55,181 bases of DNA, taken from assembly GCA_023251435.1 (NCBI GenBank), contig JAHEYU010000038.1, forward strand, positions 1 through 55,181, given 5' to 3'. The position numbers and the translations under genes were made by a program. This document shows, one piece after another, positions 50,345-55,181 of this stretch; position 1 is the stretch's first letter; each line of letters starts with the position of its first letter. The notes beneath the pieces were generated by a model, which saw only the letters and a program-made list of their open reading frames with translations, had not been told where the DNA came from and did no database searches. The DNA is from Bacteroidota bacterium. Lineage in GTDB: Bacteria; Bacteroidota; Bacteroidia; Bacteroidales; Prolixibacteraceae.

Positions 50345-51439
50345 ATGAAAATCAGATTTGCACTTTTGTTAGCCCTGGTCATAAGTCTGCCAATTTTTAG
50401 TCAGGCACAAACAGCCACAGCAAAGGCACGCATTGCGTTTGAAAAACTCCAGCACAATTACGGAACCTTCAAAGAAGAACTAGGTGTTCAAACCGTGTCC
50501 TTCAATTTCAAGAACGATGGCACTGTTCCGTTAATCATCAACAATGTTCAGGCATCGTGTGGGTGTACAACGCCCGAATGGACCCGACAACCGATTGCTC
50601 CAGGAGCAAAAGGCTTGATTAAAGTAAGTTACGATCCACGAAACCGTCCGGGAGTATTTAATAAAACCATCAGGGTAAGTTCGAATGCCGAAAATCCGGA
50701 TGTTGTTTTAACCATTCTGGGCGATGTAACTGCACGTGCCAGAACCATCGAGGAAGATTTTCCAAACGTGATAGGTCCGCTTCGCGCAAAAACCAATCAC
50801 ATTGCTTTTGTACAGATCAAAGAAAATCAGTTACGAAAAGACAGTACCGAAATCGTTAATATCTCTGATCAACCCGTTCAGCTTAGTTTTAAAACACCAC
50901 CTCCTCACCTGAGTGCAGTAATCAGGCCATCCAAACTTGCTCCAAAACAAAAAGGGTACATGGTTGTAACTTTCGATGCTTCAAAAATTAAAGCCTACGG
51001 TTTTGTAATGCACCGCATCTATTTGAATATTGACGGACAGGACGATTACCGCAATTCGATTGCTGTTAGCACTACTCTGGAAGAAGATTTCTCGAAATTA
51101 TCTGCGGCCGAGCTAACCAATGCTCCTGTAGTAAAATACGATGTCGAGTCGTTCGATTTTGGCGATATTAAACCCGGTAGCAAAGTGGAGCACACTTTTA
51201 ACCTGAAAAACACCGGCAAACGCGATTTGATTATCCGCGACGTGAAAAGTTCGTGTGGATGCACCGCTGTATCGCCATCTAAGAATATGATTGCCTCGAA
51301 CGAAAGCGTGCCCTTGAAAGTTGTTTTCGACTCGACCGGCAAAAGTGGCCGCCAGAACAAAACCATTACAATTATTACCAACGACCCTAAAAACCCAACA
51401 ACCGTTTTAAGGATCTCGACCAATATTTTGACGCAATAA
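50345..51439 (+). CDS. Exported protein with two DUF1573 domains
   Basis: A 364-residue protein with a signal peptide (about 1-21) and two DUF1573 immunoglobulin-like domains. The first has FNFKNDGTVPLIINNVQASCGCTTPEW (SCGCT at 71-75) and the second has HTFNLKNTGKRDLIIRDVKSSCGCTAV (SCGC near 303). The S-C-G-C motif is the family hallmark; its cysteines may bind metal or form disulfides. Function is not established. The last 66 bp (codons for ITNDPKNPTTVLRISTNILTQ and the stop) are repeated 920 bp downstream. It is followed by a perfect 21-bp terminator stem. Confidence 0.9.
   Translation: MKIRFALLLALVISLPIFSQAQTATAKARIAFEKLQHNYGTFKEELGVQTVSFNFKNDGTVPLIINNVQASCGCTTPEWTRQPIAPGAKGLIKVSYDPRNRPGVFNKTIRVSSNAENPDVVLTILGDVTARARTIEEDFPNVIGPLRAKTNHIAFVQIKENQLRKDSTEIVNISDQPVQLSFKTPPPHLSAVIRPSKLAPKQKGYMVVTFDASKIKAYGFVMHRIYLNIDGQDDYRNSIAVSTTLEEDFSKLSAAELTNAPVVKYDVESFDFGDIKPGSKVEHTFNLKNTGKRDLIIRDVKSSCGCTAVSPSKNMIASNESVPLKVVFDSTGKSGRQNKTITIITNDPKNPTTVLRISTNILTQ
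51374..51439 (+). repeat. Direct repeat copy 1: 3' end of the DUF1573 gene
   Basis: The 66 bp from the ATT codon of ITNDPKNP to the stop codon occur again at 52294-52359. The two copies differ at two positions (T/G at 51406 and C/T at 51415), both third-codon positions that leave the protein unchanged. Confidence 0.85.
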
Positions 51440-51455
51440 ACAACGAAGATTTTAT

Positions 51456-51501
51456 AAGCCAAAAAAGCCGGTTTCTATCAAGAAACCGGCTTTTTTGGCT
51501 T
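51456..51501 (+). terminator. Terminator after DUF1573 copy 1
   Basis: A perfect 21-bp stem (51456-51476 with 51481-51501) around an ATCA loop, containing A6/T6 and GCCGGTTTC/GAAACCGGC. It could act in both directions. Confidence 0.85.
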
Positions 51502-51606
51502 ACTCCGGTCTAATGCCCCTGTTGTAGCCTCATCAAAGTCAATAGCATGCTGTAAATATATTTATGTTATCAAACACAGGTTGATCTAAGGAATCTTTTT
51601 GTTGTT

Positions 51607-51640
51607 TTTGGAATCATTAGTATATGTTTATTTAACTTTG
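51607..51640 (+). promoter_or_regulatory. Promoter upstream of the small lipoprotein gene
   Basis: TTTG at 51607-51610 and TAACTTTG at 51633-51640, 22 bp apart, match the Bacteroidota promoter. The leader to the lipoprotein start would be about 230 nt and includes the short open frame at 51727. Confidence 0.45.
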
Positions 51641-51876
51641 AGAAACTTAAAAACCAAAAATATAGAACGGTCGCCACCACATTAATCGTATTGCTATATA
51701 GTATGATAGATTTATTTACAAAAAACATGAAAACAACATTTCTTAACTTGGAGCTTTTACTCTGCTCTTTCTTCAAATTGAGTAGGATGTGAGAAAACAA
51801 TTTTCTAATGATGTGATCACTTTGGCAAACGTATTTGAAGCAAAAAATAACAACTTTAACTTTTAAAACAATAAAC

Positions 51877-52269
51877 ATGAAAAAAATTATTCCATTCATT
51901 CTTGTGATTCTTTTTTGCGCCTGTTCTGAAAACGAATACAGTGTTGAAGAAAAATTATCAGAAAAAATGAATTCCGCCACTTCTGACATCATATTGGTTG
52001 CGGAAATGCCCGACTGGCTTCAGATTAAAATTCATGACATTGAAAAAACACCTTTAGTGGAAGCGAAAGTATATCAATGTGAGTGGGAAAACCAAACCGC
52101 ATATTTTATATACAACAATTTTAATTCATGTCTGATTTGTGATGCCTATCATGCTGATGGGAACAAAATAACATTTGAAAATGATAGTAAATCTGACGAT
52201 TTCACATCAACAAGCAAAAATTGGAAATTGATTTGGTCATACTGTGATTGTAATTGGAAGAATAGTTAA
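51877..52269 (+). CDS. Small lipoprotein, possibly DUF6970-like
   Basis: A 130-residue lipoprotein: lipobox LFCAC (Cys16) and a mature part with PDWLQIKIHDIEKTPLVEAKVYQCEWENQTAYFIYNN, CLICDAYHADGNKITF and a C-terminal WKLIWSYCDCNW. The pattern W-L-x2-K-I ... Y-x-W/Y-x-x-Q-T-x-Y-x-I/V ... D-A-x-G-N-x-I ... KLIW resembles small Bacteroidota lipoproteins of the DUF6970 type, from memory. Cysteines (CLIC, CDC) could form disulfides. Function unknown. It lies between two copies of the 3' end of the DUF1573 gene, so it probably arrived by insertion. An extension upstream to a TTG is rejected because ATG 51877 starts the signal peptide. Confidence 0.75.
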   Translation: MKKIIPFILVILFCACSENEYSVEEKLSEKMNSATSDIILVAEMPDWLQIKIHDIEKTPLVEAKVYQCEWENQTAYFIYNNFNSCLICDAYHADGNKITFENDSKSDDFTSTSKNWKLIWSYCDCNWKNS

Positions 52270-52293
52270 CTTATAAAATGTGAAGAAAATGAA

Positions 52294-52359
52294 ATTACCA
52301 ACGACCCTAAAAACCCAACAACCGTGTTAAGGATTTCGACCAATATTTTGACGCAATAA
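52294..52359 (+). repeat. Direct repeat copy 2: relic of the DUF1573 gene end
   Basis: 64 of 66 bases match 51374-51439, keeping the same reading frame and stop codon. No start or upstream part of the gene is present, so it is not expressed as a protein. It is followed by its own terminator at 52382-52419. Confidence 0.85.
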
Positions 52360-52381: not shown

Positions 52382-52419
52382 GAAGCCACTTCAAATAAAT
52401 GAAGTGGCTTCTTTTTTTT
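52382..52419 (+). terminator. Terminator after DUF1573 copy 2
   Basis: GAAGCCACTTCA (52382-52393) pairs perfectly with TGAAGTGGCTTC (52400-52411) around AATAAA, followed by eight T residues. Confidence 0.85.
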
Positions 52420-52517: not shown

Positions 52518-53645
52518 ATGATTGGAGATCACCACCATCACCATATAGAAAACGACCCGGCATACTCCGGATTAAATGTAAATCAGGGTATTGAACCACT
52601 GCCTTCGGTAAGCGAAGACTCGGTTAAGCGTTTCCTGAAACACAAAAAAAAGCGCAGTTTATCGGTACAACAATTCGTTGACGGAATCCTGAATGGCGAT
52701 ATTACTATTTTGAGTCAGGCGGTAACGCTGGTTGAAAGTTCGAAACCCGAACACCAGGAAATTGCCCAGGAAATAATCGTAAAATGTCTGCCTTTCTCCG
52801 GAAATTCGGTTCGTATCGGGATTACCGGAGTTCCGGGAGTTGGCAAGAGTACCTTTATCGAAGCCATGGGGAAACACATTACTTCGAAAGGAAACAAACT
52901 GGCTGTTTTGGCCATTGACCCCAGCAGCGAGCGCACCAAAGGAAGTATTTTGGGCGATAAAACTCGGATGGAAGATCTTTCCATCGATCCGAACGCGTAT
53001 ATCCGTCCCTCCCCGTCGGCAGGTTCGCTGGGCGGCGTGGCCCGCAAAACACGCGAAATAATTGTGCTCTGCGAAGCGGCGGGGTTCAACCATATTTTTA
53101 TTGAAACTGTGGGCGTGGGGCAAAGCGAAACTGCCGTACATTCGATGGTTGATTTTTTCCTTTTGCTGATGCTGGCCGGTGCCGGCGACGAGTTGCAGGG
53201 AATCAAACGCGGTATCATGGAAATGGCCGATGCCATCACCATCAATAAAGCCGACGGAAACAACATCGAAAAAGCCGGACTGGCACGGGTTCAGTATATG
53301 AATGCCCTGCACCTGTTCCCTGCTTCCGATTCGGGATGGAAACCGAAAGTGCTCACCTGTTCGGCTTATATGAAAACAGGCATCGGCGAAATCTGGGAAA
53401 CCATCGACGAATATCTGGCACATGTAAAAGGAAATGGCTATTTTCAGCTCAAACGGAACGAGCAATCGAAATTCTGGATGTACGAAACAATCAACGAGCA
53501 CCTGCGAAACAGCTTTTACCAAAACGAACAAATTAATGGTTTGATGGAAGAATTGGAGGTAAAAGTTTTGAAAGAAGAAATTTCGTCGTTTGTTGCCGCA
53601 AAGAAATTACTCGATTTATACGATCAGATAAAGAAGAACATTTAA
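52518..53645 (+). CDS. meaB: Methylmalonyl-CoA mutase-associated GTPase MeaB
   Basis: A 375-residue G3E-family GTPase that protects and loads B12 into methylmalonyl-CoA mutase. Motifs are Walker A GITGVPGVGKSTF, the switch block LAIDPSSERTKGSILGDKTRM, FIETVGVGQSE and the base-recognition NKAD. An unusual natural run of five histidines follows the start (MIGDHHHHHIENDPAYSGLNV); the rest of the N-terminus is typical of Bacteroidota MeaB. The mutase genes are not in the window. ATG 52518 is chosen over a TTG at 52512. Length is normal apart from the tract. Confidence 0.95.
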   Translation: MIGDHHHHHIENDPAYSGLNVNQGIEPLPSVSEDSVKRFLKHKKKRSLSVQQFVDGILNGDITILSQAVTLVESSKPEHQEIAQEIIVKCLPFSGNSVRIGITGVPGVGKSTFIEAMGKHITSKGNKLAVLAIDPSSERTKGSILGDKTRMEDLSIDPNAYIRPSPSAGSLGGVARKTREIIVLCEAAGFNHIFIETVGVGQSETAVHSMVDFFLLLMLAGAGDELQGIKRGIMEMADAITINKADGNNIEKAGLARVQYMNALHLFPASDSGWKPKVLTCSAYMKTGIGEIWETIDEYLAHVKGNGYFQLKRNEQSKFWMYETINEHLRNSFYQNEQINGLMEELEVKVLKEEISSFVAAKKLLDLYDQIKKNI

Positions 53646-54850: not shown

Positions 54851-55036
54851 ATGAAAACCGACGAAATCATAAAATTCATTGAGGAAGACGGCTGGGAAAG
54901 GGTAAGACAGAAAGGAAGTCACATCCAGTTTAAGCACCCTTTGAAGAAAGGAGCGGTTACCATTCCTTACCATGGTAACAAAGATGTTCCGAAATGGCTC
55001 GAAAGTTCAATTCTAAAACAGGCGGGGCTTAAATAG
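54851..55036 (+). CDS. hicA: HicA-type mRNA interferase toxin, second copy
   Basis: A 61-residue HicA: VRQKGSHIQFKHPLKKGAVTIPYHGNKDVPKWLESSILKQAGL is a close match to the typical HicA core, with catalytic His in GSHIQF. A TAnnTTTG-like element, TACTTTCG (one mismatch), lies just before the start. The antitoxin follows 30 bp later. It is more typical of the family than the HicA at 15739, so the two systems are not recent duplicates. Confidence 0.93.
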   Translation: MKTDEIIKFIEEDGWERVRQKGSHIQFKHPLKKGAVTIPYHGNKDVPKWLESSILKQAGLK

Positions 55037-55051
55037 CCTTTCCTTTTAATG

Positions 55052-55059
55052 AAAGGAGA
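55052..55059 (+). promoter_or_regulatory. Shine-Dalgarno of the second hicB
   Basis: AAAGGAGA lies 7 bp upstream of the hicB ATG at 55067, a clear ribosome-binding site that is uncommon in this genome. Confidence 0.5.
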
Positions 55060-55066
55060 TAGCAAT

Positions 55067-55181
55067 ATGTTTAAAGTAGATGTGATGGTTCGACCAAACA
55101 AAGATGGATGGTGGGCTGAGATAACAAGTTTGCCCGGATGTTTTTCTGGTGGCGAAAGTCTTGAAGAATTGAGACGCAACA
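55067..55181 (+). CDS. hicB: HicB-type antitoxin, 5' part only
   Basis: The first 38 codons of a HicB antitoxin, cut by the right edge of the window. The fragment MFKVDVMVRPNKDGWWAEITSLPGCFSGGESLEELRRN is a typical HicB partial RNase H-like fold beginning (W-A-E-I-x-x-L-P-G-C-x-x-x-G-E-S). It pairs with hicA at 54851. Whether a DNA-binding domain follows cannot be seen. Confidence 0.88.
   Translation, partial: MFKVDVMVRPNKDGWWAEITSLPGCFSGGESLEELRRN

What the first reader, a model, noticed from the sequence alone, without database searches (positions are those of the whole stretch)
51374..52359. Gene 3' end duplicated around an inserted lipoprotein gene, with only synonymous differences
The last 66 bp of the DUF1573 gene recur exactly 920 bp downstream. 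The copies differ at two bases, both third-codon positions that do not change the protein, and each copy is followed by a different strong terminator. Synonymous-only change in a non-expressed relic implies that the copies come from two alleles that were each under selection, as when an element integrates at the 3' end of a gene and supplies a replacement end. The insert carries its own promoter and a small lipoprotein gene, and no integrase is seen, so it may be a minimal cassette, a decayed element, or a recombination product between strains.
Basis: partly seen in the sequence, partly recalled or inferred. Interest (0 to 1): 0.75.

Follow-up and report, generated by a model that had tools for sequence, protein, structure and literature searches.

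The report
Surface-protein cassette inserted behind a gene
A small gene with its own control region has been spliced in just behind a housekeeping gene of an uncultured bacterium, leaving a second copy of that gene's last 66 letters on the far side; it belongs to a family of such inserts that occupy recurring chromosomal spots with different contents in related species.

Summary
Confirmed: the last 66 bp of the DUF1573 gene (51374-51439) recur at 52294-52359, 64/66 identical. The insert is real: 16 of 22 genus genomes with the gene have an empty site (meaB 100-158 bp on), including the sister G015, whose hairpin matches the one after copy 2. Other species carry other cargo there. The insert looks like a truncated member of a genus-wide cassette family: a conserved leader (40 copies at E<1e-7 in 16 of 23 genus genomes, none in 38 others) often with a micro-ORF M[EKQ]R[SP]PP, then a lipoprotein or barrel, often then a type IX secreted enzyme. 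The window's lipoprotein sits behind nifJ in G014. In G007 the far copy is 246 bp and diverged like a between-species allele (dS 0.29, dN 0.02). Unequal repeat lengths, missing repeats in other occupants and no integron integrase over cut-off (0 of 23) argue against a site-specific element. Best model: one-sided homologous recombination at the gene's 3' end, displacing the old end. The synonymous-only argument is weak here (two changes) but holds in G007.

The parts
50345..51439 (+). intact DUF1573 gene, the insertion target
   Evidence: Pfam DUF1573 E 1.1e-66; orthologues
51374..51439 (+). repeat copy 1 = last 66 bp of the complete gene
51455..51502 (+). hairpin T1, left edge of the insert; resembles the hairpin behind DUF1573 in G009, G007 and G014, and less closely those in empty G003, G017 and G018
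   Evidence: 22-bp perfect arms
51549..51678 (+). conserved cassette leader (palindrome-like stretch about 51563-51578, promoter-like TTTTTGG..TATATGTTT about 51604-51629)
   Evidence: operator and promoter readings are inference
51662..51685 (+). degenerate leader micro-ORF (start codon ATA; IERSPPH) of the M[EKQ]R[SP]PP type
   Evidence: codon pattern of other copies
51877..52269 (+). small lipoprotein gene (130 aa, weak DUF6970 match below cut-off)
52270..52293 (+). 24-bp linker holding an ATG (52289) that may be the start of a lost second cassette gene; right junction of the insert
   Evidence: inference from two-gene cassettes
52294..52359 (+). repeat copy 2 = displaced 3' end of the DUF1573 gene
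52382..52411 (+). hairpin T2, the older DUF1573 terminator
   Evidence: counterpart directly behind the gene in empty G015
52518..53645 (+). meaB, right-hand neighbour in empty and occupied sites
   Evidence: gaps

Best explanation
A strain with an empty DUF1573-meaB site took up DNA from a relative whose DUF1573 gene is followed by a hairpin, the conserved leader and surface-protein cargo. Recombination was homologous at one end, in or next to the 3' end of the DUF1573 gene, and non-homologous at the other, either by a single crossover with an end-joined circle or by homology-facilitated illegitimate recombination. The gene kept a complete 3' end, followed now by the new hairpin, leader and lipoprotein; the old 3' end with its own terminator was pushed 920 bp downstream as a silent relic. 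The cargo is a truncated member of a genus-wide family of leader-linked cassettes (lipoprotein or barrel, often then a type IX secreted enzyme). Shown: empty sites, the older terminator behind copy 2, the cassette family, a similar far copy in a second species (on a separate contig), relatives of the cargo at other sites. Inferred: the route of DNA entry, the one-sided crossover, the leader being a regulated promoter with a leader peptide, and loss of a second gene.
For: Empty sites with meaB 100-158 bp on in 16 of 22 genomes with the gene; occupancy is patchy: 5 changes for 6 occupied among 22 rows (4-5 over bootstrap trees), 3 forced by well-supported branches. The hairpin after copy 2 matches the sister's only hairpin there. 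Right half of T1 plus leader is 77% identical over 221 bp to the same place in G009, while leader plus lipoprotein is 80.6% identical over about 730 bp to cassettes behind nifJ in G014 and on G002 C5. G007: far copy of 246 bp before an older-type hairpin and meaB, dS 0.29 and dN 0.02 from its full copy, like G007 against G009 (dS 0.25); the junction follows a hairpin behind a secreted-protein gene, with a possible CCTTT microhomology. The window duplication looks younger than the split from G015: about 12.7 neutral changes expected on a 66-bp relic, 2 seen, P 3e-4. Precedent: in an E. coli conjugation test 56 of 60 clones gave the duplication PCR product; 14 sequenced ones had 109-950 bp of the homologous gene end duplicated, ascribed to single crossover with a truncated circle (PMC3240628, passages read).
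Against: G009, G022 and G016 have inserts at the site with one copy of the gene end only, so displacement is not obligatory or decays. The window's copy 1 is close to G015 (2 of 66) and not to G009-like donors (12 of 66), so no donor allele is visible in the gene; the donor must have been very near or the crossover lay at the stop codon. Of 26 cassette loci scanned, 4 (W, L057, L058, L108) show a repeated host flank and 17 show no repeat at all (several loci are cut by contig ends). G007's two halves are on different contigs of an assembly with 10% contamination. The relatives used are metagenome or unnamed assemblies; no donor with the junction was found. Occupancy is no more clustered on the tree than shuffled labels (252 of 500 as low), which fits repeated gain but also noise.
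Confidence: 0.6

Rival explanations
1. Site-specific mobile cassette: a recombinase inserts cassettes at the 3' end of the gene and the 66 bp is its attachment site, the element bringing a replacement end.
For: Recurrent occupation of the same site with different cargo; a gene end duplicated in the window and, across contigs, in G007.
Against: Repeat length 66 against 246 bp; one copy only in G009, G022, G016; sites are unlike genes (DUF1573, nifJ, macB-like, trpS, gldB-like, ackA, partly named by eye); I saw no integrase-like ORF in the cassettes listed (by eye); integron integrase model over cut-off in 0 of 23 genomes.
Confidence: 0.1
2. RecA-driven cassette: the repeated host end itself lets the cassette loop out and re-enter at the same site in other cells by homologous recombination, which makes it mobile without an integrase.
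For: The empty site of G015 is what recombination between the copies would leave; host ends or terminators on both sides in W, G007, G002, G014 and G011; cargo of one site has relatives at another.
Against: Only 4 of 26 loci plus G007 show such repeats; 66 bp is short for RecA (recalled); the macB-type hairpin is a common hairpin of these genomes, so that repeat is weak evidence; no circle seen.
Confidence: 0.15
3. One ancient insertion in the ancestor of G000, G015, G009, G007, G014 and G011, lost in G015 and G011; the two window copies kept alike by gene conversion.
For: Shared hairpin T1 and leader at the site in G000, G009 and G007, T1 also in G014; these six form one supported clade.
Against: A relic that old should have about 12.7 changes, 2 seen; G007 and window repeats differ in length.
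Confidence: 0.12
4. Assembly artefact joining two contigs through the shared gene end.
For: The genome is in 148 contigs; no reads could be checked.
Against: Copies differ at two bases and have different flanks; copy 2 is followed by the hairpin and meaB expected from G015; a similar far copy in G007.
Confidence: 0.03

Closest known systems
Homology-facilitated illegitimate recombination / single-crossover integration with partial gene duplication (PMC3240628, start of abstract and passages read)
   Same: One homologous end; duplicated pieces of the homologous gene end of variable length
   Different: That is a laboratory test with plasmids; here the event is inferred from genomes and the cargo is a natural surface-protein cassette
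Displaced effector 3' ends and orphan immunity genes of Vibrio cholerae type VI clusters (PMC5361080, start of abstract and passages read)
   Same: Constant upstream anchor, new cargo inserted behind it, old gene end pushed downstream, small partner gene kept; authors invoke the same recombination
   Different: Here the displaced end is of an unrelated gene, the cargo family is type IX secreted, and cassettes recur at many loci with their own leader
Allelic and domain exchange of surface proteins in Porphyromonas gingivalis (PMC5266723, abstract and outline read)
   Same: Bacteroidota surface proteins diversified by recombination
   Different: As the abstract tells it, exchange and rearrangement of given genes; no leader-linked cassettes behind housekeeping genes mentioned there
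Integron gene cassettes (recalled)
   Same: Interchangeable cargo, tandem arrays (G009 C119, G009 C63)
   Different: No integron integrase over cut-off, several chromosomal sites, each cassette with its own leader

Membership tests
Homology-facilitated illegitimate / single-crossover integration product | empty site in relatives, with the resident sequence intact on the far side | tested here: met
Homology-facilitated illegitimate / single-crossover integration product | duplicated homologous end of variable length | tested here: met
   66 bp in window, 246 bp in G007, the latter across two contigs
Homology-facilitated illegitimate / single-crossover integration product | donor allele on one copy and recipient allele on the other | tested here: inconclusive
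   two alleles in G007, two differences only in the window
Homology-facilitated illegitimate / single-crossover integration product | donor DNA with its non-homologous right end identified | tested here: inconclusive
   leader and cargo relatives found, no donor carrying the junction
Integron cassette | integron integrase in the genome | tested here: not met
   over the cut-off of TIGR02249 in 0 of 23 genomes; sub-threshold tyrosine recombinase matches in all 23 and in all 14 controls
Site-specific integrative element at a gene 3' end | constant att length on both sides | tested here: not met
Site-specific integrative element at a gene 3' end | own recombinase gene | tested here: inconclusive
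   the window insert holds only the lipoprotein as a convincing ORF; other cassettes were read by eye, with REP-type transposase-like ORFs in L099 and L106
Genus-wide leader cassette family described here | leader match | tested here: met
   (BLAST to L007, L008, L015, L002, L035, L036); model R2 E 8.9e-26, but the window is 1 of its 32 training rows
Genus-wide leader cassette family described here | intact leader micro-ORF | tested here: not met
   window start codon is ATA; frame intact in 24 of 32 copies, so not an obligatory feature
Genus-wide leader cassette family described here | second gene with type IX sorting domain | tested here: not met
   absent in the window; over cut-off in 6 of 6 second genes tested elsewhere, which I chose because their ends looked alike; other cassettes hold a barrel or lipoprotein alone

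The most novel reading that the evidence does not exclude
An uncultured Prolixibacteraceae genus runs an integrase-free expression-cassette system: one conserved promoter plus proline-rich micro-peptide leader drives interchangeable lipoprotein/barrel and type IX secreted enzyme pairs, which sit at a set of 3'-end sites and move within and between genomes by ordinary recombination through host gene ends, leader and shared C-terminal domain; the window shows one event caught with its displaced gene end and an orphan lipoprotein, which might be an inhibitor or immunity partner.
Probability: 0.35. Interest if true: 0.75.

Novelty: new variant of a known kind. Interest (0 to 1): 0.52.

Why it matters
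It gives a roughly dated, readable footprint of how cargo is added behind a housekeeping gene without harming it, and it exposes a leader-linked family of surface-protein cassettes in uncultured Bacteroidota whose promoter, micro-peptide and movement are directly testable. In the listings of my full-text searches (lists capped at 10-15 papers, and empty) I saw no title or abstract start that describes such a family; subscription papers and preprints were not searched.

Full report
Observation. The 66-bp copies are at the stated places, 64 of 66 identical, both differences synonymous; no other direct repeat of at least 30 bp and 85% exists in the window. The insert between them (51440-52293) has 31% GC against 43% in the gene and holds one convincing gene, a 130-residue lipoprotein.

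Organism. The window is a whole contig of an unnamed 5.73-Mb genome. The 19 named loci at 80-95% identity to the DUF1573 protein are records of uncultured Prolixibacteraceae or Bacteroidota, one labelled Odoribacter. The genus as held has 23 genomes.

Empty and occupied sites. Of 23 genomes, 22 have a full-length orthologue (all but G002). In 16 of these 22 meaB begins 100-158 bp behind the gene; in G000 (window), G022, G016 and G009 the distance is 1078, 1338, 1548 and 3527 bp; in G007 and G014 the contig holds no meaB behind it. A tree of the gene puts the window beside empty G015 and needs five changes for six occupied rows among 22 (4-5 over bootstrap trees), three of them forced by well-supported branches; shuffled labels do as well in 252 of 500, so occupancy is scattered. 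G015 has one hairpin between gene and meaB, the counterpart of the one behind copy 2, so copy 2 and T2 are the old end.

Other cargo at the site. G009 has leader, lipoprotein and a subtilase; G022 leader and a barrel-like ORF; G007 leader and a barrel (Pfam OMP_b-brl_2), then on another contig the tail of a type IX protein; G016 a nucleotidyltransferase-like and a PIN-like ORF (named by eye), no leader.

Left edge. T1 resembles the hairpin in G009, G007 and G014 most, but empty relatives such as G003, G017 and G018 also have a hairpin with a similar stem behind the gene. It is therefore a mark of a DUF1573 site rather than of cassettes.

G007. On contig C940 the tail of a secreted protein is followed by 246 bp of DUF1573 3' end, a TAG stop as in G011, the old-type hairpin and meaB; the full gene on C134 ends in TAA and the T1 hairpin. 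The two ends differ at 19 of 246 places: 13 synonymous, 5 others, one in the stop codon; a neutral relic would give that many synonymous ones with P 6e-5. dS is 0.29 and dN 0.02, like G007 against G009 at 0.25 and 0.007. Caveat: two contigs, 10% contamination; the fragment may belong to another member of the community.

The window event. Against G015 each copy has one private change. With dS 0.39 between window and G015, a relic older than that split should carry about 12.7 changes; two are seen (P 3e-4, simple Poisson, gene conversion not excluded). Hence probably a recent event.

The cassette family. A sequence model of the leader (R1 from 8 rows, R2 from 32) finds 40 copies at E below 1e-7 in 16 of 23 genus genomes and none in 38 genomes outside it, best there 2.9e-5 (32 of these 40 trained R2, 8 are new; stricter filters may lose weak ones). 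Copies sit behind DUF1573, nifJ, a MacB-like permease, trpS, a gldB-like gene and ackA, near mgtE and rsmA, and elsewhere, with differing cargo (gene names partly by eye). At the MacB-like site 5 of 15 readable rows show the leader within 420 bp, and G000 and G006 have it there. At nifJ, 2 of 10 readable rows show it (G009, G014), and G019. G009 has two leaders in tandem on C119 and on C63. Six second genes, chosen because their ends looked alike, all carry the type IX sorting domain over cut-off, five of them with S8, GH16, C10 or M43 domains. Other cassettes hold a barrel or a lipoprotein alone.

Kin at other sites. The window leader plus lipoprotein is 80.6% identical over about 730 bp to cassettes on G014 C541 (behind nifJ) and G002 C5; G009's DUF1573 cassette is 79.9% identical over 2250 bp to one on G009 C23, a contig that carries the right-hand neighbour of nifJ; G002 C5 is 86.7% identical over 2038 bp to G009 C63. 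G002 is awkward: its contig C210 has nifJ directly followed by the usual neighbour gene, while C5 has the cassette before such a gene, which may be strain mixture. The window's T1 and left leader resemble G009's DUF1573 site, so I read the insert as chimeric: left part from this site, cargo with kin elsewhere (inference).

Leader micro-ORF. In 24 of 32 copies an ATG opens a short frame of the type MERSPP or MERPPP (21 of 32 strictly M[EKQ]R[SP]PP). Among 23 copies (one duplicate left out, eight without intact frame dropped) entropy summed over codons 2-6 is 5.8 bits at third positions, 3.0 at first and 0.3 at second, arginine being kept by CGN and AGA. That is a peptide signature. In the window the start is ATA and in G009's DUF1573 copy the frame stops after two codons, so not all cassettes need it. 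Proline runs stall ribosomes (PMC4176338, start of abstract in a listing); a regulatory role here is inference.

Repeats at other sites. A scan of 26 cassette loci for a repeat of the upstream flank found nine with something at E below 0.01: W, L057, L058 and L108 with host end or terminator; L095, L096 and L099 with tandem leader regions; L104 and L106 unclear; 17 had none, some of them cut by contig ends. So a repeated host end occurs at several sites but is not a rule.

Mechanism. The variable length of the displaced end, its absence elsewhere and a non-homologous right junction fit one-sided recombination. In a conjugation test most such clones turned out to be duplications of the homologous gene end, explained by single crossover with a shortened circle (PMC3240628). 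Type VI clusters show displaced 3' ends and orphan immunity genes by an analogous route (PMC5361080). The window lipoprotein, alone and without an enzyme gene, may be such an orphan, but its function is unknown.

Verdict. Observation right; interpretation right on insertion and probably on the replaced end, not borne out on a fixed cassette site. The larger point is the cassette family.

Noticed in passing
window 51549-51685 and 39 further leader copies at E<1e-7: Conserved leader with a palindrome-like TATGTTT-nn-AAACATA stretch and micro-ORF M[EKQ]R[SP]PP in front of secreted-protein cassettes, found in one genus only among 61 genomes.
   Followed up: partly
L099 1417-2103 and L106 2661-3203 (oriented as): REP-type single-strand transposase-like ORFs (named by eye) lie among the cassettes, and repeated 'CATCAGGATATGC..GGATTTGTAATCC' stretches lie near cassettes in L057, L058 and L107.
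   Followed up: no
L183, L184: In Marinifilum caeruleilacunae and a Bacteroidales assembly the DUF1573 gene is followed by a second DUF1573 gene of nearly full length.
   Followed up: no
L101 7578-9248 and 10152-11315 (oriented): Two neighbouring secreted proteins in the single-contig genome G012 are identical over the last 90 residues but start differently, a sign of domain swapping or conversion.
   Followed up: partly
window 54851-55181: HicA-like short ORF and start of a HicB-like ORF at the contig end, right of the thioredoxin-family gene (by eye).
   Followed up: no
L058 971-1364: The window lipoprotein's relative in G014 is frameshifted.
   Followed up: no
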